Shown: positions 1,120 through 21,922 of the stretch, piece after piece | Layout of the letters: every line of letters begins with the position of its first letter | How positions within the stretch are numbered: position 1 is the first letter of the stretch | From: a virus | Strand: one strand, 5' to 3' | Length of the DNA stretch: 21,922 nt | Virus record (IMG/VR): IMGVR_UViG_3300033064_006333 | Coordinates: 1 to 21,922 of that record | Notes under the pieces: model-generated | What the model was told of the DNA's origin: nothing | The model's database searches: none | Seen by the model: only the letters and a program-made list of their open reading frames with translations | Position numbers and translations under genes: made by a program

Positions 1120-1923
1120 TTAAAACTTAGTAGTTATTACAGAGCCCAACATCTCGTTTGGTGATGGTAGTTGTGTTCTCACCATCACTCTTCTGACCCA
1201 TCTATCGGTGCCATCGTATTTTGCAGAGAAATGTCTTCGACCATGCACTGTTCTGTTGTTTTCAATTACTAGTAGGTCCCCTGTTTTTAATGTTATTCCC
1301 CTTGTGGAATTTTCTACTGCTTTTTGGAACGTAATAAGTGAATTGCAGGCGGCGTCATTTATCCCGGTCATTAATGCTTTGTCATAAAGCATCGTCCAGT
1401 AAACACTAGGAAAAGTACGAGCCTGGGTCTCTGCTAGATTTACCTGATGTTTGGTTAAAACAGATAGCAGGATTTCTTTATCTCCTTCTCCGTTCATGCG
1501 GAAACTTAAATCAAGCGAAGTTTTAAACATCGGTTGCTTGAGTATCTCAATTGTTTCTTTATCTAGTTGGCTAATAATATTGTCGATATTTGCATAGGTC
1601 GTAACAGCAGTAGGGTCGCCCCTTAAACAAAACAGCAATACGTAATCGGGCTTGTAGGGATGGAATGCTGCTTCAGTATGTAGGTCAAGATTCACCATGG
1701 AAGAAGTGCTGATTTGTTTATCTTCAGTGCCTCTTAGTGGGATGATATTTTGAATTAACTTACCTTGTTGCTCTTGAGCGTAACCAATAGGGAAGCCGTA
1801 GGTTTTAGCAATCTCCATAAGTTGGGTCGTAGATAAATCAAGGTGCGCGGATTCATAAATAACATTATCTGGAGTCTTGGGAACAGTTCCGACTCTTAAC
1901 CCCTGATATAAACGGATAGTCAT
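1120..1923 (-). CDS. Fe(II)/2-oxoglutarate oxygenase, VioC/AsnO (clavaminate synthase-like) type
   Basis: The 267-aa product carries the facial triad of clavaminate synthase-like enzymes: His82-Thr-Glu84 (context NLDLHTEAAFHPYKPDY) and the distal His227 in NRTVHGRRHFSAKYDGTDRW. Arg241 lies 14 residues after the distal His, the position of the 2-oxoglutarate-binding Arg in VioC and AsnO. Known relatives hydroxylate the beta-carbon of arginine or asparagine, free or carrier-bound. The substrate here is unknown. At 267 aa it is about 70-90 residues shorter than VioC/AsnO and begins where their first beta-strand starts. The 73-aa gene upstream overlaps it by ATGA, so that gene may supply the missing N-terminal helices. 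There is no good ribosome binding site, so translation is probably coupled. Confidence 0.85.
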   Translation of the reverse strand: MTIRLYQGLRVGTVPKTPDNVIYESAHLDLSTTQLMEIAKTYGFPIGYAQEQQGKLIQNIIPLRGTEDKQISTSSMVNLDLHTEAAFHPYKPDYVLLFCLRGDPTAVTTYANIDNIISQLDKETIEILKQPMFKTSLDLSFRMNGEGDKEILLSVLTKHQVNLAETQARTFPSVYWTMLYDKALMTGINDAACNSLITFQKAVENSTRGITLKTGDLLVIENNRTVHGRRHFSAKYDGTDRWVRRVMVRTQLPSPNEMLGSVITTKF

Positions 1924-7579: not shown

Positions 7580-9499
7580 ATGCTAGAACAATCATTTGTA
7601 GATTCCTATTCTCAAAAATCGGCCCCATGGGGTTTTAACGGGCTCGGAGAAATTGTATTCATGCGTACATACAGCCGCAAAAAAGAAGATGGGCTGAATG
7701 AAACATGGTCCGAAACATTGCAACGAGTGATTAATGGTGCCTTAGAAATCGGGGTTCCATATACGGACGAAGAAGCAAAAACTCTTTTTGACCATATGTT
7801 TAATTTGCGATGTTCTTTTTCCGGACGTTCTCTCTGGCAGTTGGGTACACCTTTGGTTAAAAAATTAAATGGCACATCTTTAAATAATTGCTATTTTACA
7901 AATATTGAAAAAATTGAAGATTTTGAAATGATTTTTGAGTACCTGATGCTTGGCGGTGGGGTTGGTTTTTCGGTTGAACGCTCCAAGATTCACGAACTTC
8001 CTAAAGTTATCTCTGATGTCAGTATCACCCAAGAAAGAACAAATGATGCCGACCTGATTGTCCCAGATTCACGTCATGGTTGGAAACGACTTTTACACGC
8101 AGTCTTGAAATCATATTTTTATACTGGTAAATCATTTTCTTATTCCACAATTCTCATCAGAGAGTACGGCGCACCACTGAACACTTTCGGGGGTACTGCA
8201 TCAGGGCCCGGTGCACTCATCGATGGGATTAAAGATATTTGTGGCGTAATGGAAAACCGAGTAGGAAAGAAATTACGCTCTATCGATGTTCTAGATATTT
8301 GCAATATTATTGGTCGGATTGTGGTTTCTGGTTCATCTCGTCGCTCAGCGCAAATTGCAATGGGCGACCCCGATGATGTACTTTTTCTCCGAGCAAAAAA
8401 TTGGTCATCGGGGACAGTTCCTGCGTGGCGCGCTAATTCAAACAACAGTATTTATGCTGATTCGTTTGACGAGATACAACCAGAACTATGGAGGGGCTAT
8501 GACGGCACAGGAGAGCCGTACGGCTTACTTAACCGTAAGTTGGCTCGGAAGTATGGCAGACTAAATGAATTGAAACTAGACCCTTCTATTGAGGGCTTCA
8601 ACCCATGTGCAGAAATCGGCCTTGGGGACGGCGAGTCCTGTAACCTTGCAACAATTTTTCTCCCAAATATTGACTCAATTGAGCAACTAAAAGAAATTTC
8701 AATTTTGCTTTATAAAACACAAAAACAAATTACTCAACTTTCCTATTCTTATGAAAAAACGACCAAAATCGTTCATCAAAATGCTCGCTTGGGTCAATCG
8801 GTTACCGGCATTCTTCAAGTTAGTGAAGAAAAAATTGACTGGTTGTCTGAGTGTTATTCTTTTTTAGAAAAGTTTGATAAAGAATATTCAATAAAAAATA
8901 ATTTGCCGGTTTCGGTCCGTCTTACTACGGTTCAGCCGTCAGGGACTCTTTCACTATTGCCCGGGGTGACACCAGGCATTCACCCTGCTTTTGCTCAACA
9001 CTACGTGCGCCGAGTTCGCTTTGGTTCGTCTGACCCACTTGTTGATGTTTGCCGAAAGCGGGGACATAAGGTTCAATGGGACGTTGGTCTTGACGGTAGA
9101 GAAGACCACACTCGATTTGTTGTTGATTTTCCATGCATGTCCCCAGAAAACTCGGTCTTAGCAAAAAATATGTCGGCCGTTGACCAGTTGGAATGGGTAA
9201 AAAAGATGCAAACAATTTGGGCAGACAATGCGGTTTCGGTAACTGTTTACTACCGAAAAGAAGAACTTGAAACAATTAAAAATTGGCTAGATAGAAACTA
9301 TACAAAAAACATCAAGTCGGTTTCTTTTCTTCTTCACGCCGACCATAATTTCATTTTACCTCCTTATGAAGAAATAACGGAAGATGAATACAAAAAAATG
9401 TCTTCCAAAATTGATTCATCAATCCCTTTGGTCCAAAAATCTTTTGATGGAGACATAGAGATTGACGACTGTGCGACAGGAGCATGCCCTATCCGCTAG
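7580..9499 (+). CDS. nrdJ: Adenosylcobalamin-dependent (class II) ribonucleotide reductase
   Basis: This 639-aa enzyme reduces ribonucleotides to deoxyribonucleotides for phage DNA synthesis, using adenosylcobalamin to form a thiyl radical. All five key Cys of the Lactobacillus-type monomeric reductase are present: Cys104 (NNCYF) and Cys354 (ESCNLA) as the active-site pair, Cys343 in NPCAEIG as the radical Cys with Asn341 and Glu345, and Cys631/Cys636 in the C-terminal CATGAC for re-reduction. The 11-residue gap between Cys343 and Cys354 and the 5-residue gap at the C-terminus match that enzyme. The TTVQPSGTLSLLPGVTPGIH block is also typical. It is about 100 residues shorter than the 739-aa enzyme. 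GGGGAAG precedes the ATG. The tRNA follows 12 nt after the stop. Confidence 0.95.
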   Translation: MLEQSFVDSYSQKSAPWGFNGLGEIVFMRTYSRKKEDGLNETWSETLQRVINGALEIGVPYTDEEAKTLFDHMFNLRCSFSGRSLWQLGTPLVKKLNGTSLNNCYFTNIEKIEDFEMIFEYLMLGGGVGFSVERSKIHELPKVISDVSITQERTNDADLIVPDSRHGWKRLLHAVLKSYFYTGKSFSYSTILIREYGAPLNTFGGTASGPGALIDGIKDICGVMENRVGKKLRSIDVLDICNIIGRIVVSGSSRRSAQIAMGDPDDVLFLRAKNWSSGTVPAWRANSNNSIYADSFDEIQPELWRGYDGTGEPYGLLNRKLARKYGRLNELKLDPSIEGFNPCAEIGLGDGESCNLATIFLPNIDSIEQLKEISILLYKTQKQITQLSYSYEKTTKIVHQNARLGQSVTGILQVSEEKIDWLSECYSFLEKFDKEYSIKNNLPVSVRLTTVQPSGTLSLLPGVTPGIHPAFAQHYVRRVRFGSSDPLVDVCRKRGHKVQWDVGLDGREDHTRFVVDFPCMSPENSVLAKNMSAVDQLEWVKKMQTIWADNAVSVTVYYRKEELETIKNWLDRNYTKNIKSVSFLLHADHNFILPPYEEITEDEYKKMSSKIDSSIPLVQKSFDGDIEIDDCATGACPIR

Positions 9500-11129: not shown

Positions 11130-11375
11130 TTAAACTTCGATAAAAATACATTCACCTGGACACTCTTCGGCAGATTCAACAACGTCACCAAGGCGGTCTT
11201 CTGCGAAAAATGCTAAACCGCTTGCGCCTTCCTCGTTCCCTCGCAGTTTGGAAAACACTTTCCCATTCTCTTGGACGTACGCCAACCCATCCTCCAGCAT
11301 GATGAATACATCTGGGGCTATTTCCGCGCACAGGCCATCTCCAGTACATAAGTCTTGGTCAATCCATACTTTCAT
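11130..11375 (-). CDS. Single-cluster ferredoxin
   Basis: The 81-aa product begins VWIDQDLCTGDGLCAEIAPDVF, with Cys10 and Cys16, and ends AEECPGECIFIEV, with Cys72 as third ligand. The spacing CxxDxxC...CP puts Asp13 where the fourth ligand of a [4Fe-4S] cluster would be, as in Pyrococcus furiosus ferredoxin, which also carries Asp there. A [3Fe-4S] cluster is the alternative, as in actinobacterial ferredoxins that serve cytochromes P450. It is a small soluble electron carrier, and the partner in the phage is unknown. The class II RNR normally uses thioredoxin. It follows the 122-aa gene by 7 nt, and no Shine-Dalgarno site is visible. Confidence 0.88.
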   Translation of the reverse strand: MKVWIDQDLCTGDGLCAEIAPDVFIMLEDGLAYVQENGKVFSKLRGNEEGASGLAFFAEDRLGDVVESAEECPGECIFIEV

Positions 11376-14582: not shown

Positions 14583-15899
14583 TTAGGCTGGAGCGTTGTT
14601 AAAGTAAACCTTCACAAACGACTCTGGGCGCTTGACGGCAAGGGCGAGACGTTGCTCGGCCAAGATGACAATTGCGTTACGAATGAAGAAGTCTGCATGC
14701 TGTTCGCTAATGCGAATGCTTGCTTGTTCACGGTCGTAGATTTGTGCACCCGTACCAAATGCACCAACAAGTGCATATGATTCGGTCATTGCTGGTGTCT
14801 CAACGATTGGAAGACGCCATACTTTTGGCTCGCCACCCATTGCTACTGAAAGAGCAATCAAGTATTGGCCATTGCCGTCTTTTGTCAATTCGATTGATTC
14901 CCAATCGTTTGGATGGAGAACAACACCAGATGGCTCGTAGTAAGCAAGGTATGACAAGGTTGCTGCACGACGAATCGCATCAGCCTTTGTGTCTGCCTTG
15001 CCGTTTGCGGCTTCGTTTGCACCCATTGACCAACTGTAGGTCTGAACACCTGTGGTGTTCATGATGCCAGTGAGGTTTTCACCACTTCCTGAACCGTTGA
15101 GGATTTGTGCATCCTCTTGAAGGCGAAGGCCGTACATCAACTCGTTGTCGATAATTGAACGCAACTGTGGCTCATCTGCAAGAACGTTGCGATGGGCTGC
15201 TTCCCAGTGTGCAAGTGTGCGGACCGAAGTCTGTACACCTTCAAATGACATGCTTGACTGTGGCTTAGCAGCAAACGCTGTATCTCCAGCATTGCGCTCT
15301 GCAACCATGGCTGCGTTATTCGTGAAGCCAGTCATGCGGAAGTACTCAATTACTGTTGATGTTGTTGTGCGAACTGGGAACAGGTCACGAACACGCTTTG
15401 TGCGCATTGGTGGAATCACCATTGGGTCACGTGTGATTGTGCCGAACGAACCAGGAGTGCCTGATGGCATTGCTGTGTAAACATCTTTTACACTGTAATT
15501 GCCGGTTGTGAGTGTGTGGCCAACTTGGAATGCTGCTGGCATGTTTGCACCGCCACTAGCGATAAGTGACTTGTACTCATTTGAGGCAAGAAATGCTTCA
15601 CCAACTGATGAAAGTTGTTTTGCTGGGATTGCAAAACCAGCGGCTGCTGCTGCTGCAACAGACTGTCCGCTCGCTTGTGAGCCCCAATTTTCAACTTCTT
15701 CCATTGATTCAAGACCTACGATGAGGTTCTTGATTTCTTTGATGTCAACCATGTTTTTGTCGAATGAGGACTTTTGCTCCGAACCAACAACGACTGTGCC
15801 GTCAACAACTTTGAATGAATCTGCAATTGCTTTATTATCTGCCATTTTTGTACGAAGTGCTGTTTGCAGTTCGCTTAGGCGTGATGTGTCTTGTGACAT
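14583..15899 (-). CDS. HK97-fold major capsid protein
   Basis: The start at 15899 is chosen because AAAGGAAAA precedes that ATG; the frame runs open to 16007 but the extra residues look unlike coding sequence. Residues 1-70 form a charged helical region like the delta/scaffold domain of HK97 gp5. After an Ala-rich linker comes the capsid domain: GSFGTITRDPMVIPPMRTKR (about 150-169), the E-loop region, SMSFEGVQTSVRTLAHWEAA, and ILNGSGSGENLTGI (about 266-279), which is the diagnostic motif of the family. The 438-aa product builds the head shell. The usual maturation protease gene is not next to it; the two giant proteins take that place. A strong terminator follows. Confidence 0.93.
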   Translation of the reverse strand: MSQDTSRLSELQTALRTKMADNKAIADSFKVVDGTVVVGSEQKSSFDKNMVDIKEIKNLIVGLESMEEVENWGSQASGQSVAAAAAAGFAIPAKQLSSVGEAFLASNEYKSLIASGGANMPAAFQVGHTLTTGNYSVKDVYTAMPSGTPGSFGTITRDPMVIPPMRTKRVRDLFPVRTTTSTVIEYFRMTGFTNNAAMVAERNAGDTAFAAKPQSSMSFEGVQTSVRTLAHWEAAHRNVLADEPQLRSIIDNELMYGLRLQEDAQILNGSGSGENLTGIMNTTGVQTYSWSMGANEAANGKADTKADAIRRAATLSYLAYYEPSGVVLHPNDWESIELTKDGNGQYLIALSVAMGGEPKVWRLPIVETPAMTESYALVGAFGTGAQIYDREQASIRISEQHADFFIRNAIVILAEQRLALAVKRPESFVKVYFNNAPA

Positions 15900-15949
15900 T
15901 TTGTTTTCCTTTATATAGAATTTGGACTTTGATACCTGGCTAAGGTAAG

Positions 15950-15987
15950 CACCCAGCCCTATCATCAAAATTAGCAGGGTGTTTTTT
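15950..15987 (+). terminator. Plus-strand terminator-like hairpin upstream of the capsid gene
   Basis: CACCCAGC (15950-15957) pairs with GCAGGGTG (15974-15981) with one mismatch, and six Ts follow on the plus strand. No plus-strand gene precedes it. It may block antisense transcription into the giant-protein genes, or be a leader hairpin of the capsid transcript when read on the minus strand. Confidence 0.5.
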
Positions 15988-16048
15988 GATTTAGTGCAAC
16001 TAGTCAATATATTTAACTAATTATTGTGTGTAAATAACTAAAGCAATT

Positions 16049-18526
16049 TTAAGGCCACTTACGTTTGTAGTATTCAAGATTTTTAACACCCTGTGGAGTA
16101 ACTCTTCCACCAGTTGACCATGACATAAATTTTTGCTCATCATTTACCGAAAATACACCATTTTCTACTTTGGCTATCAATTTAGGAGCAGCACCAAAAG
16201 GTACGTCGTTGTCCCATAGAAAAAAACTTCCGATTTGTTTATCTTTTAGATATTGGGTCATCATGTTGTATGAGGTGTTTGCAATGTGGGGCAAAATATG
16301 ACTTGCAACTTTCCTACCATCAACTTTTTCTCTATCATCAAGTCTTTTTTGGGCAATTCCTGGGTTAACATATGCCGCGTGCGCGATTGTTTGATACCGC
16401 GGGTCATTGGTTGTTTTGTATTCCGGTAAACGTGTTCCGGTTCCTTGGGTAACTATATCCATTCCCTGTTTGCTAGCCTGCGAAACAACGTCTGTTGCCG
16501 TATGTGCCGATTCCCTATGAACACTTATTGCTCCAGTGCCAGAATCGTAACCATCAAGTGCTTGTTTGATAAAGTCTGGGTCAATATGGGCGGCTTCAGT
16601 CTCTGTGGGTATTAGCCCACGTTTGGCAAGAAAATCGGTCAATGTTGTTTTCCCCATGCCGGGAGCACCAACAATAAAATAGTGTCGTTTTTCCCCATCT
16701 GGCTTAATGCTCTCTGGGTTAACTCTTTCAAGGATGATTTCAGAAACACGTTTTGCACCAATATTTGTAATTGTGTTTATGTTGGTTCTAGAACGAACAC
16801 CCCTATTGTCTCCTGAATATCTTGTATAAAATTGCTTTAATAAACGCCAATCTTTATCCGAAAGCATTTGGTCTTTGTCAAATTTTACAACCAATGAGTA
16901 AGGGACAACAAAGTTCGGGCGCGCGCGACCCCAATCAAGGTAGTGAATTTTTGTTGATGGAGGCCAAGTATCTGGAGAGTCGGCATTTGATTGAGACAAA
17001 CGCCTACGTGGCCTCTGTGATGACTGTAAGCCAGTTGCCTTGGTTGACGATTTACCAATTAAAAGAATATCAATTTCACTATCGGTCATTCCGATATCTT
17101 TTAGTTTTTTGATTATTGCATCCATCGAATCTTTGCGAATATCACGTTGTGGTATCGGTACACCACGCTCATCTCTTTGAATCATGCCATCACCACGAGC
17201 CATTGACTGACGGGCTGAACCAGACTGAGAACGTGTCCCTCGCACTGAAGGTGTTGGTGGAACTAAAGAATTTCTTTTTACCCCACTTGAGTAAGCAGAT
17301 TGCGCTCCCTGTCTTGTGATTCCAAATTTTTTAGCAATTTCATCAAAACCCATACCTTGAGAACGTAATTTCATAATCTCTTCGGTTTGTTTACTTATTG
17401 GCCTACCTCTACCAACTTTTTCTGGTGGTACGTCAGTCTCATAAAACATCGGCCAAATATTGCTCGGGTTTATCCCAAGTACGTTTACGGCAAGTCTGTC
17501 GGCGGCATACGTATCTAAAGATGCGTCAACTTCATTCATTGCGTCAAATACTTCTGTTGAAACACCAAGTGTTGTTGCTTTTTGTTCACGGGTAAGTCCA
17601 CGAAGAAAACGCATATTAAGAATATTTTCAGCCTTGAATGGGCCACCTTTTTTAATGTCGGAAAGAGAAACCTGTGGTGAAGTAAATGGTTTTTTAACTG
17701 CATCAGAATCTAACGGACCGGGTTTCCCAGAACGCAGTCCACGTACAGGGGCTGGCATTTCTCTCCATGTGCCATCAAAAATTAAACCATCGTTGTCCAC
17801 GTCTCTTCTTTTACGTGGGTCTAATTCCCCAGCAATCTCAGACATTACTCGACTCGTTGTTCTTTTTTTACTTGGTGTTAATGCACGCCCAATGCGTGTA
17901 CCAATACCTTTTGTTTCATGCAATTCTTCAAATAAGGATTTTTTACGACGATTAAGTTCTTGTCTTACAATAGTTCTTATAGCCCTATTGCCCGTTTCTC
18001 TTTGATTCCTTCTACCTAGTGCAGTAGTCCCAGCCAATCTTGCGTAATCTGTATTGTTTGTACATGGCATCCATACCAATTTTCCACTTTGCGATGACAG
18101 TCTGCGTACGCCGATACACCCAAGTCTTACTGAGCGTTTTCGGGCAGATTCAATATCCGTATAAACATCATCGTCGTTATCACGAGGAGAAAGACCAGGA
18201 ATAATCCCCTTAACCGAAGTGATTGGGGCAGAGACAATACCTCCACCAACTAGGGTAGAGAATCCTAATGGGGTTGATTCTCTAAGGTTCTCCCACTGTT
18301 TTCTTTTACTTTTTTTATTTCGTTTTTTAATGTTTTTTTCAATATCGCTCAGCGCTGTTTTTTTTCCAGGTTCTGCCTGTCTTGATATCCGTAACAGTTC
18401 ATTATGGGTTGCGCATGGCATCCACTTACCATCTTCGCCTTTATGGGCACCACTACAACCAATCCATTGTGCAGCCCTAAGGGCAAAGACTTTTGAATTT
18501 GTATTTGTTTTTTCTGTTTCGGTCAC
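16049..18526 (-). CDS. 825-aa multidomain protein with zeta-type kinase domain
   Basis: The start is GTG (18526), 12 nt after the 133-aa gene. Domains in order: two related Cys modules (Cys24...WMPC38 and Cys137...WMPC155); a calcium-loop-like stretch DVDNDGLIFDG (Asp242, 244, 246); a helix-turn-helix-like region (GRGRPISKQTEEIMKLRSQG, FDEIAKKFGITRQG, 372-407); and a C-terminal P-loop kinase with GAPGMGKTT (620-628), HIDPDFIKQAL (648-658), HRESAH (670-675) and DIVTQGTG (690-697). The last set matches zeta toxins and related kinases that phosphorylate UDP-sugars or nucleotides. Arg/Lys-rich linkers join the parts. Its place before the capsid gene suggests a virion protein or injected effector; this is inference. 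Confidence 0.75.
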   Translation of the reverse strand: MTETEKTNTNSKVFALRAAQWIGCSGAHKGEDGKWMPCATHNELLRISRQAEPGKKTALSDIEKNIKKRNKKSKRKQWENLRESTPLGFSTLVGGGIVSAPITSVKGIIPGLSPRDNDDDVYTDIESARKRSVRLGCIGVRRLSSQSGKLVWMPCTNNTDYARLAGTTALGRRNQRETGNRAIRTIVRQELNRRKKSLFEELHETKGIGTRIGRALTPSKKRTTSRVMSEIAGELDPRKRRDVDNDGLIFDGTWREMPAPVRGLRSGKPGPLDSDAVKKPFTSPQVSLSDIKKGGPFKAENILNMRFLRGLTREQKATTLGVSTEVFDAMNEVDASLDTYAADRLAVNVLGINPSNIWPMFYETDVPPEKVGRGRPISKQTEEIMKLRSQGMGFDEIAKKFGITRQGAQSAYSSGVKRNSLVPPTPSVRGTRSQSGSARQSMARGDGMIQRDERGVPIPQRDIRKDSMDAIIKKLKDIGMTDSEIDILLIGKSSTKATGLQSSQRPRRRLSQSNADSPDTWPPSTKIHYLDWGRARPNFVVPYSLVVKFDKDQMLSDKDWRLLKQFYTRYSGDNRGVRSRTNINTITNIGAKRVSEIILERVNPESIKPDGEKRHYFIVGAPGMGKTTLTDFLAKRGLIPTETEAAHIDPDFIKQALDGYDSGTGAISVHRESAHTATDVVSQASKQGMDIVTQGTGTRLPEYKTTNDPRYQTIAHAAYVNPGIAQKRLDDREKVDGRKVASHILPHIANTSYNMMTQYLKDKQIGSFFLWDNDVPFGAAPKLIAKVENGVFSVNDEQKFMSWSTGGRVTPQGVKNLEYYKRKWP

Positions 18527-18538
18527 TTTATTTAAGCC

Positions 18539-18940
18539 CTAGCCAAGAGTAAGTTTTCTACAAGCCCCAATTGGGTCCCCCGGAAAACGTTTTTGCCAAA
18601 GACGTGCTTCCCCTAACTCATCAGAAAATTTTTTTTCTAAAATGTCGAAAGGGTTTCCAAATACGTCTGGGTCAATTAATGAAGAATTCTGTCCTTTTTC
18701 GGGGATAAGGCTGTCAATACGTTTAAGTTCTTTTTTGAATTCATCAATAAACCTACGTCCGGTATTTGTCGTTAAGTCAAAACCCCAACGAGGTTTTTCC
18801 TTGGTACCAGAATTTTCAACATCGACAAATGGTGGAAAATCCATAATAAGTTCCATTTCGCCTCTGGTTTTGTTCCAATCCATACGCGCCGTATCGACTA
18901 TTTTTTTATCGAATTTACCTTTGTCTGTATTTGTTTCCAT
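18539..18940 (-). CDS. 133-aa protein of unknown function between the two giant genes
   Basis: TAGGGG lies a few nt before the ATG at 18940. The product is highly charged and helical (FIDEFKKELKRIDSLIPEKG) with an N-terminal strand region (RGEMELIMDFPPFVDVEN). No family is recognised. The spacing of 12 nt on both sides puts it in one operon with the giant proteins, so it may be a chaperone, scaffold or immunity partner; the sequence alone does not decide. Confidence 0.7.
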   Translation of the reverse strand: METNTDKGKFDKKIVDTARMDWNKTRGEMELIMDFPPFVDVENSGTKEKPRWGFDLTTNTGRRFIDEFKKELKRIDSLIPEKGQNSSLIDPDVFGNPFDILEKKFSDELGEARLWQKRFPGDPIGACRKLTLG

Positions 18941-18952
18941 ATTAAACCCCTA

Positions 18953-21922
18953 TCAGCCGTATTTGGCCATGATGTCGTTACGTCGATTAATTAGTGTTTG
19001 TGTCAATTTTGCTGCACGCTGCGGGTCACTTACTATTGCGGAAACAGTCGCACGGATTCTGTCATCGGCAATAGTAGACAAAGCCTGTGCTTGTTTTTTT
19101 ATTTCTGCTGAATCTATTCCCGTAAAATCAATATTACCGCCATTTTTTGCCATTGACGTCATTTCTCCAACCGTATCACCAAAGGGTGTTGATGTTGTTT
19201 CTTTTTTAGCACCTTGAGCCCTGTAATCAAGTGAACCACCAACATCTAATCTGACCGGTTTATTGTTTGAGTCAAATTTAATATTGTCATTCAACGCAGC
19301 ATCCCAGTTAGCCAACCATGCATCTGCAACAAAACCTGCGCGTGCAGCGTCTTGGTCGGAACTACTATTTGGCATTCTTGCCGTAATCATTCGGGAAAGC
19401 ATTCTTGGCTCACCAGACCTGTCACCCATGGATAAATCCGCAGCCTGAACTCCAGCCAATTGATAGAGTTTCGATGCAAGAACTTCGGTTTCCATCCGTT
19501 CTATGGCTTGCGGTAATGGTTCATTTGGTTTTGGTTTTTTTGCATAATACTGAGAACCGTCTGGCGCTGTTAACAATTCTGCTGGGTTTGACCCTGTTGA
19601 GAATGTTGGCTTACTGGATTTCCATGAAGATGTATCGACTGCATTTTGTGACACCGCATTACTTGGCTGAGTCGGCGAATTACTGGTTTGTGTTTTACGC
19701 CTTACGGTGCGTGGTTTTACTCTTGACGATTTTGTAGGTTCAACATCTACGGCTGCACTTACAGTATTTTTCTTCTTCCACTTATTCCAAGTCTTAACAA
19801 CCCCGCCGCTCATTTCTTCTGCGTCTTTGCGCGTCATCGGAGTCTGGAATGCAGCAACAATACTTCGATTATGAAGCAATATAGGGTCTTTTGATGCGTC
19901 GCCTTCGTTGGTGTCAATCGCGTCAACACCGATAATCGGCGCGAAGTTGCCAACTTCTTCATTTTTGGAAAAACGTTGTAGGTAATCAAGTGATTTTATT
20001 ATTTGAACTTTTTCTACGCTATTATCACCAGGGGTGTTTTCTAATTCCTCTAGACGCGAAATAAGTTGATTTAAAATTTGGCCGCTAATGGTTTTTGATT
20101 CTGCTAGTTGAGGTGCACCTTTTCGTGCCAATTGTGCTAGTTCTCCAGGGCTCATGGCTTCTGTCATTTCCCTTCCACCAGCAGTAACAAACTGATTATG
20201 GATTAAGGTTGACAAATTTGCCATGTCTTGTCTTTCGTTGTTCAATTCACTAGATGTCATTATCTTGGCGGATGGTGGAATCAAAACCAACATTGAGTGC
20301 CTGTCTTCTGCGCCCCCAGAATAACCAGTAAAGTTACCGCCAGGAAAAACAAAATATTCACCAACCCCATACATGCGTCCACCTTGGCCTGGGACAAATC
20401 TACCAAGACTTGTTAAGAACTGTTCAACGTAACTTTCGCTCTCTACCGCTTGGTTACCAGTTCCTCTAACGACTGGCTGCCAACCAGCGTCAAGCAGACT
20501 TTGTACTTCGTCTTTGGTAACCAAAGACGGAGTTTCCGAAAATCCAAAATTTTCCCAAAGGGTTGCAAGTAGTTTATCGTACGCTTTGTCTCCCTGTGTT
20601 TTTTTCTGCTCTAGTCTTTCGTCAAGCAGCGATAATATATTGGCAAATTGTGGGGTGATGGTAACTTTTCCATCCGGAGAAATTAGAACTGGGTGTTCTT
20701 CAATTTTTCTTTGCCCAAGACTGTCTGAAAGTTCTTCTGCATTTTTGGTTTTTCTAAACTTAGACAAAACTTGTCGTTTAAATGCCGCAGTACGAAGTTT
20801 CCTTTTTTTGATTTGCTGTGCTGGGTCAAGAATGATTGGATTACGACGTCCTTCTCCTGCTGTTCTCTGACGACGAAGGTTTCTTTTTGCTGCCCTCTGT
20901 GGGTTAGTACGTAGAATTCGTGAACGCAGCGATACTTGTTTTTTATCTTTAAATTTCTTAGAACTCAAGATTGTTTCAAGCGTTTTTCGAACTTCGGGTT
21001 GAGAAGTGAATTCATCAAGGAGTGCTTCTTCTTCAACTGGTGTTAGATTTTTGCCCGCACTTAGTTTTTTTAATAGAGGTTCAGCGATATCGTTTGTTCC
21101 AGCAATGGCGTCTAGTTGTTCTTTAATAAATCTTTTATCATCACTAGTAATCGATTTTGCGGCATCTTCGGATGCTTTTCTATCTTCTTTGTTTAAGCCA
21201 GCGCCAACGCCAAAGACTGATGATTCTGTTTTATCAGTAAAATTTTTAACTTTCTTAAACGAAGGGTCGGAACTAAGTGCATTTAAGATTGCCTTTTTTT
21301 CTGGTGGATGCAGATGTTCGAGTAAGGAGAAATTATTGGTTTCCTGCATATTCATCAAAAGGGTTAAAGTATCAATTTCTTTTTGAACTTGCCGTCTACG
21401 CTGTTGTGGTATGTCTTTGTCAATATCCAGAAGTCTCTGCATTTCGGTAATGTCACCCCGATTAAAAGGGTCATCAGGGTTACGCGGAGAGAATCGACCA
21501 CCAAGTATTGATTGTTTTTCAGCACCTCTGACCTGGGCGTTCCACCATTTAGGGAAATCTTTCGTTTTAAATTTGTCAACGATTTTTTTCTGATTAGCAG
21601 CGAGAGCCGCTTCTGCTGTTTTTCTTTGTTCTGGACTCAATGATTCCCAAAATGCACCGTCAGATGGGCCTACTTTGTCAACACCTGGGCGACGTTTGCC
21701 TTTACGTCCAGGCGACGAACTAGACGCTAATCCACGTGGGGTTGCGGCTCGTTCCGTAGTAGCAATTGCTCTTCGTGAACTTGAGTTTTGTGAACTTCGA
21801 CTTCGCCGTGGTTCGGGTTTAATCCGCGAAGGGTCAACACCAGAAAGTCTTTTTATAAACTCACCCAATCTTTTATCACCCTGGAGTTCGCCATTATTAA
21901 ATTCATCGAGGATGCCCTGAAA
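18953..21922 (-). CDS. Giant protein with ADP-ribosyltransferase-like and kinase-like regions (5' partial)
   Basis: The frame is open to the window edge (at least 989 aa); positions below count from the TTG at 21868. Residues 1-380 are Arg/Ser-rich and helical. Residues about 450-675 resemble phage ADP-ribosyltransferases: Arg468-Gly, MYGVGEYF (499-506), GVDAID (647-652) and LLHNRSIVAAF (664-674). After a Pro/Ser linker, residues about 757-950 look like a HipA/PI3K-type kinase: YYAKKPK (Lys777 or 778), METEVLASKLYQLAGV with Glu795, NWDAALNDN (Asp856, Asn860/862) and RLDVGG (Asp875) as the DFG equivalent. It may be a MuF- or Alt-like virion protein that modifies host targets; this is inference. 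Confidence 0.72.
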   Translation of the reverse strand, partial: FQGILDEFNNGELQGDKRLGEFIKRLSGVDPSRIKPEPRRSRSSQNSSSRRAIATTERAATPRGLASSSSPGRKGKRRPGVDKVGPSDGAFWESLSPEQRKTAEAALAANQKKIVDKFKTKDFPKWWNAQVRGAEKQSILGGRFSPRNPDDPFNRGDITEMQRLLDIDKDIPQQRRRQVQKEIDTLTLLMNMQETNNFSLLEHLHPPEKKAILNALSSDPSFKKVKNFTDKTESSVFGVGAGLNKEDRKASEDAAKSITSDDKRFIKEQLDAIAGTNDIAEPLLKKLSAGKNLTPVEEEALLDEFTSQPEVRKTLETILSSKKFKDKKQVSLRSRILRTNPQRAAKRNLRRQRTAGEGRRNPIILDPAQQIKKRKLRTAAFKRQVLSKFRKTKNAEELSDSLGQRKIEEHPVLISPDGKVTITPQFANILSLLDERLEQKKTQGDKAYDKLLATLWENFGFSETPSLVTKDEVQSLLDAGWQPVVRGTGNQAVESESYVEQFLTSLGRFVPGQGGRMYGVGEYFVFPGGNFTGYSGGAEDRHSMLVLIPPSAKIMTSSELNNERQDMANLSTLIHNQFVTAGGREMTEAMSPGELAQLARKGAPQLAESKTISGQILNQLISRLEELENTPGDNSVEKVQIIKSLDYLQRFSKNEEVGNFAPIIGVDAIDTNEGDASKDPILLHNRSIVAAFQTPMTRKDAEEMSGGVVKTWNKWKKKNTVSAAVDVEPTKSSRVKPRTVRRKTQTSNSPTQPSNAVSQNAVDTSSWKSSKPTFSTGSNPAELLTAPDGSQYYAKKPKPNEPLPQAIERMETEVLASKLYQLAGVQAADLSMGDRSGEPRMLSRMITARMPNSSSDQDAARAGFVADAWLANWDAALNDNIKFDSNNKPVRLDVGGSLDYRAQGAKKETTSTPFGDTVGEMTSMAKNGGNIDFTGIDSAEIKKQAQALSTIADDRIRATVSAIVSDPQRAAKLTQTLINRRNDIMAKYG

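What the first reader, a model, noticed from the sequence alone, without database searches (positions are those of the whole stretch)
18953..21922. Capsid-operon giant protein joining ADP-ribosyltransferase-like and kinase-like domains
One reading frame of at least 989 aa carries the Arg-Gly / YGxGxYF / DAI / NR pattern of an ADP-ribosyltransferase and, after a flexible linker, a Lys / Glu / D-x4-N / DVG pattern of a HipA/PI3K-type kinase. Two different protein-modifying activities in one probable virion protein, with long basic linkers, would be a new version of the injected-effector principle known from T4 Alt.
Basis: partly seen in the sequence, partly recalled or inferred. Interest (0 to 1): 0.75.

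Follow-up and report, generated by a model that had tools for sequence, protein, structure and literature searches.

The report
Giant phage protein with two enzymes
This is the back half of a huge protein made by an uncultured bacterial virus next to its shell gene, carrying a confidently predicted HipA/CtkA-type kinase and a probable ADP-ribosyltransferase, so it looks like a multi-enzyme package carried in the virus particle to take over the host cell; the idea is known, but this kinase family and this enzyme pairing had not been named in any record or library searched here.

Summary
Minus strand 18953-21922 is one open frame of 989 aa, cut at its N-terminus by the contig end. Full-length relatives are 1.2-2.6 kaa, and near relatives share the operon giant > 133 aa > HTH/zeta protein > major capsid protein.

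The C-terminal domain (residues ~761-989) is a kinase fold. AlphaFold2 pLDDT is 93; the best solved match is Helicobacter CtkA (Z 16.5), then CotH and HipT/HipA. K795, E813, D874, N880 and D893 are invariant in 65 viral sequences. No phage record found names it a kinase.

The ART call (residues ~455-710) is probable, not proven. No curated family matches, but the best structural alignment is a PE-like toxin (Z 6.7), and a motif-enriched profile ranks PARPs first in the whole PDB (E 0.016). R486, Y523, D667 and N685-R686 are invariant in 18 sequences.

The same kinase is fused, in reverse order, to a different ART (PF03496) in named phages. One, Yersinia phage fHe-Yen8-01, is annotated 'phage particle associated'.

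So it is a new variant of the published polyvalent proteins, not a new principle.

The parts
18953..21922 (-). open frame of 989 aa (P0001), C-terminal part of a giant protein; N-terminus lost at the contig end
   Evidence: full-length relatives 1212-2586 aa
21713..21736 (-). residues 63-70 RGLASSSS: copy of a recurrent linker motif, candidate processing site
   Evidence: up to 7 overlapping regex hits per relative against about 0.1 in shuffled sequence
21188..21670 (-). residues ~85-245: conserved mostly helical N-terminal domain, function unknown
   Evidence: alignment A4, model
20633..20950 (-). residues ~325-430: strongly basic, conserved helical linker (R/K-rich)
19793..20560 (-). residues ~455-710: probable ADP-ribosyltransferase domain with a helical insertion (~557-664)
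20465..20467 (-). R486, candidate first catalytic residue (position of His in PARP/PE-like ARTs)
   Evidence: invariant 18/18; aligned with the HGT motif of PARP15
20354..20356 (-). Y523 of GxGEYF, candidate second catalytic residue (Tyr of H-Y-E ARTs)
   Evidence: invariant 18/18; aligned with YGKGTYF of PARP15
19922..19924 (-). D667 of GVDAI, candidate third catalytic residue
   Evidence: invariant 18/18
19865..19870 (-). N685-R686 of LLHNRSIV; by eye the place of the Asn-Glu of PARP1
   Evidence: invariant 18/18; the PARP1 equivalence is from memory, and the C-half profile found no PARP
19643..19765 (-). residues ~720-760: flexible, basic and Ser/Pro-rich linker between the two domains
   Evidence: sequence; pLDDT 33-39 over residues ~715-735
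18956..19642 (-). residues ~761-989: kinase domain of HipA/CtkA fold
19538..19540 (-). K795, ATP-binding lysine
   Evidence: invariant in 65 sequences
19484..19486 (-). E813, helix-C glutamate
   Evidence: invariant in 65 sequences
19301..19303 (-). D874, candidate catalytic aspartate (ANWD)
   Evidence: invariant in 65 sequences
19283..19285 (-). N880, metal-binding asparagine
   Evidence: invariant in 65 sequences
19244..19246 (-). D893 of DVGGSL, metal-binding aspartate
   Evidence: invariant in 65 sequences
18539..18940 (-). 133-aa conserved operon neighbour of unknown function
   Evidence: found directly downstream of the giant gene in the near relatives
16049..18526 (-). 825-aa operon neighbour: DUF3721, sigma-70/resolvase-like HTH, zeta-toxin-type P-loop kinase; shares a DxDxDG module with the giant protein of relatives
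14583..16007 (-). HK97-type major capsid protein
   Evidence: PF05065 E 7e-49, phrog_10 5e-67

Best explanation
The frame is the C-terminal half of a giant polyvalent cargo protein of a tailed phage. It is made late with the capsid genes, packaged in the head, perhaps cut at its basic RGLxSxT linkers, and released into the host with the DNA. Inside, the ART-like domain (R486/Y523/D667) would transfer ADP-ribose from NAD to a host target, and the HipA/CtkA-type kinase would phosphorylate a host Ser/Thr target, by analogy with HipA and HipT perhaps an aminoacyl-tRNA synthetase, so that host metabolism or early defence is disabled before phage genes are expressed. Shown: the frame, the kinase fold (by confident prediction) and its intact catalytic residues, the conserved operon with the capsid gene, the recurring fusion of this kinase to ARTs. 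Probable: the ART fold. Inferred: packaging, processing, injection, both activities and all targets.
For: Kinase: AF2 pLDDT 93.2, pTM 0.87; CtkA Z 16.5 over 209 residues, CotH 13.9, HipT 11.2, HipA 10-11; Foldseek E 2e-6; 22 of 65 members touch HipA_C, best E 2.7e-4; catalytic residues invariant in 65. ART: best VIA match is the PE-like toxin Jlx, Z 6.7 over 132 residues, with PARP3 and PARP1 also listed; profile of the N-half ranks PARP15/12/13/14 as the top 17 of 19 PDB hits, best E 0.016; invariant R, Y, D, NR. Pairing: of 162 kinase frames in held loci 39 also hold a PF03496-type ART and 30 the window-type ART; at 70% clustering 20 and 9 of 86 lineages. Virion: giant > 133 aa > HTH/zeta > MCP conserved; portal-family gene found in 32 other loci, mostly just upstream of the kinase giant; homologue in phage fHe-Yen8-01 annotated 'phage particle associated protein', with kinase E 1.8e-75 and ART E 7e-8. 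Concept published (PMC5512222, PMC9503650).
Against: Foldseek finds no significant PDB match for the ART model, and Z 6.7 is within the range of unspecific matches. No Pfam, NCBIfam or PHROG ART family matches it, PF18760 and PF00644 included. His of H-Y-E is Arg here and the usual catalytic Glu is not evident, so activity is unsure. The C-half profile finds no PARP. No proteomics of this phage exists; the particle annotation is of a homologue with another ART, and the paper behind it was not found.
Confidence: 0.66

Rival explanations
1. The 455-710 domain has the ART fold but is a pseudo-enzyme that binds NAD, RNA or a protein; only the kinase is active.
For: The His of PARP/PE-like ARTs is replaced by Arg (R486) and the expected Glu position carries R686 or D667; PARP13, known as an inactive ART-fold protein (own knowledge), is among the profile hits.
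Against: R, Y, D and NR are invariant in 18 sequences as far as 23% identity, which suits catalysis; Arg at the first position is normal in the R-S-E clade (PMC3482391).
Confidence: 0.2
2. The protein acts in the infected cell late (assembly, or immunity against other phages) and is not injected; the kinase phosphorylates virion or host envelope proteins.
For: Late-operon position; for the HipA-family kinase between portal and MCP of 'Gratiaviridae' the authors proposed superinfection immunity (PMC8008677).
Against: A homologue is annotated as particle-associated; ARTs next to head genes are taken to be packaged (PMC9503650); basic linkers and huge size fit packaged cargo better (inference).
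Confidence: 0.2
3. The 455-710 region is a structural or scaffold-like head protein domain and the ART resemblance is accidental.
For: No significant ART family or Foldseek PDB match; large helical insertion.
Against: Across the whole PDB the top hits of the profile are PARPs only, the top structural alignment is an ART, and the invariant residues fall on ART motif positions.
Confidence: 0.12

Closest known systems
Polyvalent proteins of phages and conjugative elements (Iyer et al. 2017, PMC5512222)
   Same: Giant polypeptide, disparate enzyme domains joined by linkers, encoded with phage head genes, ART and kinase among the known domain types, predicted to be injected.
   Different: Kinase is not Kinase-PolyVal and ART is not ART-PolyVal by HMM; no metallopeptidase family matched in the scanned relatives.
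CtkA of Helicobacter pylori (PDB 3akk)
   Same: Closest solved fold of the kinase domain, Z 16.5 over 209 residues.
   Different: About 14% identity; CtkA is a separate bacterial protein, not a domain of a phage giant protein.
HipA/HipT toxin kinases
   Same: Fold (Z 10-11) and active-site layout; weak HipA_C matches in 22 of 65 members.
   Different: Below the HipA_C cut-off; a domain of a giant phage protein instead of a toxin-antitoxin gene pair.
'Gratiaviridae' HipA-family kinase (PMC8008677)
   Same: HipA-type kinase encoded between portal and major capsid genes of phages.
   Different: No ART fusion is mentioned there; homology to the present family was not tested.
Pseudomonas phages Jeremy, Dolphis, Touem01, Aeromonas phage ST4, Yersinia phage fHe-Yen8-01 'ADP-ribosyltransferase' or hypothetical proteins
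   Same: Same kinase family; in Jeremy, Touem01, ST4 and fHe-Yen8-01 shown here to be in one polypeptide with an ART.
   Different: ART is of the PF03496 type and lies after the kinase; the window ART is of another family and lies before it. The kinase is unannotated in all of them.
T4 Alt
   Same: Would work alike in principle: head-packaged ART delivered with the DNA.
   Different: Alt is an R-S-E ART (PMC5512222); here the signature is R-Y-D/NR and a kinase is joined to it.

Membership tests
HipA/CtkA-fold kinases | kinase fold of the HipA/CtkA/PI4K group | tested here: met
   pLDDT 93, CtkA Z 16.5, CotH 13.9, HipT 11.2, HipA 10-11
HipA/CtkA-fold kinases | ATP Lys, helix-C Glu, catalytic Asp, metal-binding Asn and Asp | tested here: met
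   K795, E813, D874, N880, D893 invariant in 65 sequences
HipA toxins proper (PF07804) | HipA_C model over its cut-off | tested here: not met
   0 of 10 records over the cut-off, none in the window; E-values of 2.7e-4 at best, in 22 of 65 members
HipA toxins proper (PF07804) | HipB- or HipS-type antitoxin neighbour | tested here: inconclusive
   neighbours are a 133-aa unknown and an HTH/zeta protein; the antitoxin was not sought by its own model
Kinase-PolyVal (PF18762) | PF18762 model | tested here: not met
   no match at E 10 in 10 records
ADP-ribosyltransferase superfamily | ART fold | tested here: inconclusive
   favourable but weak: Jlx Z 6.7, PARP3/PARP1 about 4.2, no Foldseek significance, PARP15 profile E 0.016
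ADP-ribosyltransferase superfamily | three-residue active site of a known type (H-Y-E, H-Y-D or R-S-E) | tested here: not met
   R486-Y523-D667 with N685-R686: a mixed signature; this lowers the claim to a standard type, not to the superfamily, whose active sites vary
ADP-ribosyltransferase superfamily | NAD-dependent transfer | not testable with these tools
   needs biochemistry
ART-PolyVal (PF18760, H-Y-D) | PF18760 model | tested here: not met
   no match at E 10 in 9 records
Alt/VIP2 (R-S-E) ARTs | Arg, then Ser and Glu at the second and third motifs; PF03496-type model | tested here: not met
   Arg present, but GxGEYF and HNR stand at the second and third motifs; no PF03496 match
Polyvalent proteins | two or more disparate enzymatic domains in one long polypeptide | tested here: inconclusive
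   kinase well supported, ART probable
Polyvalent proteins | encoded with phage head genes | tested here: met
Polyvalent proteins | packaged in the virion and injected | not testable with these tools
   indirect only: homologue annotated as phage particle associated

The most novel reading that the evidence does not exclude
An undescribed, widespread phage kinase family of the HipA/CtkA fold is a recurrent effector of giant virion-operon proteins, joined in separate lineages to at least two different ARTs, so that phosphorylation and ADP-ribosylation are delivered together; the window's partner is a new ART clade that works with an R-Y-D/NR active site in place of H-Y-E.
Probability: 0.35. Interest if true: 0.72.

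Novelty: new variant of a known kind. Interest (0 to 1): 0.52.

Why it matters
If true, a kinase that occurs in some 250 viral stretches of one search and in 19 deposited phage records, none of which names it, is part of the first-strike kit of many phages. Its pairing with ARTs in isolated phages, for example of Pseudomonas putida, makes the question of what injected phage enzymes modify directly testable. An ART with Arg in place of the catalytic His would also be a useful test of which residues ART chemistry needs.

Tried and rejected
Pfam, PHROGs and NCBIfam scans of the protein and of the domain alignments: no significant family for the ART; PF18760, PF00644 and PF18762 sought directly: nothing. 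PDB sequence search with the kinase profile and with the full ART profile: nothing meaningful. ART region against 50,697 phage records at E 10: no match, so it is known here only from IMG/VR contigs. C-half ART profile against the PDB: only SepF at E 1.2. The viral fold library gave uncharacterised proteins only; the one followed, phage SP-15 gp271, touches DUF3626 and ends in a similar GxGxY...GYDAI...N pattern, but this was not decisive. I took the profile ranking of PARPs as support, not proof: five of its 19 rows were chosen by motif or structure, and without them PARP15 stood at E 1.1. The paper behind the particle annotation of fHe-Yen8-01 was not found.

Full report
What is there. The window is a 21,922-base virus record of IMG/VR, a linear fragment. 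The finding is the minus-strand frame 18953-21922: 989 codons, stop at 18953-18955, and it runs off the contig end. Near relatives encode 1212-2586 aa, so the window probably holds the C-terminal 40-60%. It is a real gene: relatives align at 39-50% identity along most of its length.

Surroundings. Downstream follow a 133-aa protein, an 825-aa protein with DUF3721, an HTH and a zeta-toxin-type P-loop kinase, and an HK97-type major capsid protein. This order is kept in the near relatives. The capsid protein is closest to those of actinobacterial phages with contractile-tail genes, such as Brevibacterium phage Cantare and Gordonia phage Chidiebere, 46-47% identity; in Chidiebere a gene annotated as a VIP2-like ART and an HTH protein lie upstream of the capsid gene. 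In more distant relatives a portal-family gene was found in 32 loci, mostly just ahead of the kinase-bearing giant gene, and head proteases follow in many; GodonK and DSL-LC01 are annotated examples.

Kinase domain, residues about 761-989. An alignment of 65 viral sequences has invariant K795, E813, D874, N880 and D893. AlphaFold2 gives pLDDT 93.2 and pTM 0.87. Foldseek puts CtkA first (E 2e-6); VIA-align gives CtkA Z 16.5 over 209 residues, CotH 13.9, PI4K-IIalpha 13.0, HipT 11.2, HipA 10-11. Sequence alone reaches HipA_C only weakly (22 of 65 members, best E 2.7e-4) and never over its cut-off in the ten records tested. The Kinase-PolyVal model does not match. The fold is therefore well supported; activity is likely from the intact residues but untested; the substrate is unknown.

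ART-like domain, residues about 455-710. Curated families fail. The 661-residue model of residues 75-735 has pLDDT 76, with the ART part mostly 85-95. Foldseek finds nothing significant in the PDB; the best VIA alignment is the PE-like toxin Jlx, Z 6.7 over 132 residues, with PARP3 and PARP1 at about 4. The profile of the N-half alone has PARP15 among its sub-threshold hits (E 1.1); with five more divergent phage domains, picked by motif or structure, PARP15, 12, 13 and 14 become the top 17 of 19 PDB hits (best E 0.016). In that alignment RGT stands on HGT and YGVGEYF on YGKGTYF of PARP15, so R486 replaces the His and Y523 keeps the Tyr. R486, Y523, D667, N685 and R686 are invariant in 18 sequences; L107, aligned later, departs at the D and N positions. 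By eye, LLHNRSIV resembles the strand that bears the catalytic Glu of PARP1 (from memory), but the C-half profile does not confirm it. I put the ART fold at about 0.8 and activity lower.

The pairing recurs. Reference phages Jeremy, Touem01, ST4 and fHe-Yen8-01 have the same kinase (HMM E 1.8e-75 or better) followed by a PF03496-type ART (ST4 only at E 0.013 by Pfam, but its C-terminus was one of the four used to build the local profile). In the held loci 162 frames have the kinase, 39 also the PF03496-type ART, 30 the window-type ART; at 70% clustering of the kinase these are 20 and 9 of 86 lineages. The sample was drawn mainly by the kinase, so these are frequencies among kinase proteins, not evidence that the kinase is needed. 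Three different queries find the same 19 deposited phage records, none naming a kinase. Bacterial genome contigs, some probably prophages, also hold the family.

Virion. This is the only direct hint of packaging, and it is a homologue with a different ART.

Mechanism. The best reading is a packaged, injected, multi-enzyme effector. Packaging, injection, activities and targets are inferred from the operon, the homologue and the published polyvalent-protein concept (PMC5512222, PMC9503650). A recurrent RGLxSxT-type linker motif, up to seven overlapping hits per protein against about 0.1 in shuffles, may mark cleavage by the head protease; this is a guess.

Known or new. The principle is published. 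ART-PolyVal and Kinase-PolyVal are defined, and neither matches. HipA-type kinases between portal and capsid genes were reported in 'Gratiaviridae' (PMC8008677). The bacterial Hip-kinase phylogeny consulted (PMC8262856) treats toxin-antitoxin families; a word search of it found no mention of virions. New here are this kinase family, its recurring ART partners and the mixed ART signature. Hence new variant of a known kind, interest 0.52.

Noticed in passing
window 16049-18526 (-); L003:13378-16008: Operon neighbour joins DUF3721, a sigma-70/resolvase-like HTH and a zeta-toxin-type P-loop kinase; the L003 orthologue matches a phage sigma-factor family at 1e-10. It may be a second packaged effector or transcription factor.
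   Followed up: partly
L003, L004, L006, L007 giant proteins; window 16049-18526; L104:334; L099:7611: A module with a calcium-loop-like DxDGDGxxx[DE]GT is shared by three or four proteins of the same late operon; possibly a packaging or docking module.
   Followed up: partly
window 21713-21736 and linkers of L003, L004, L006, L007, L105: Recurrent linker motif RGL[RAS]S[ST] or RGMRS[REQ], strongly enriched over shuffled sequence; candidate head-protease cleavage sites.
   Followed up: partly
L111, L113, L132, L144, L158: Pseudomonas syringae-group genomes hold the same kinase family, mostly in frames of 560-773 aa; prophage or other role not examined.
   Followed up: no
L030, L031, L142: Frames with two copies of the kinase domain.
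   Followed up: no
window 7580-9499 (+): B12-type ribonucleotide reductase with a tRNA-Arg (TCT) just after it, on the strand opposite to the head operon.
   Followed up: no
window 1120-1923 (-) and 11130-11375 (-): TauD-type dioxygenase and ferredoxin-like genes, likely auxiliary metabolic genes.
   Followed up: no
L161:27328-29616 (Bacillus phage SP-15 gp271): Touches DUF3626 (E 9e-5) and ends in a GxGxY...GYDAI...N pattern like the window ART; perhaps a further ART-like phage protein.
   Followed up: partly
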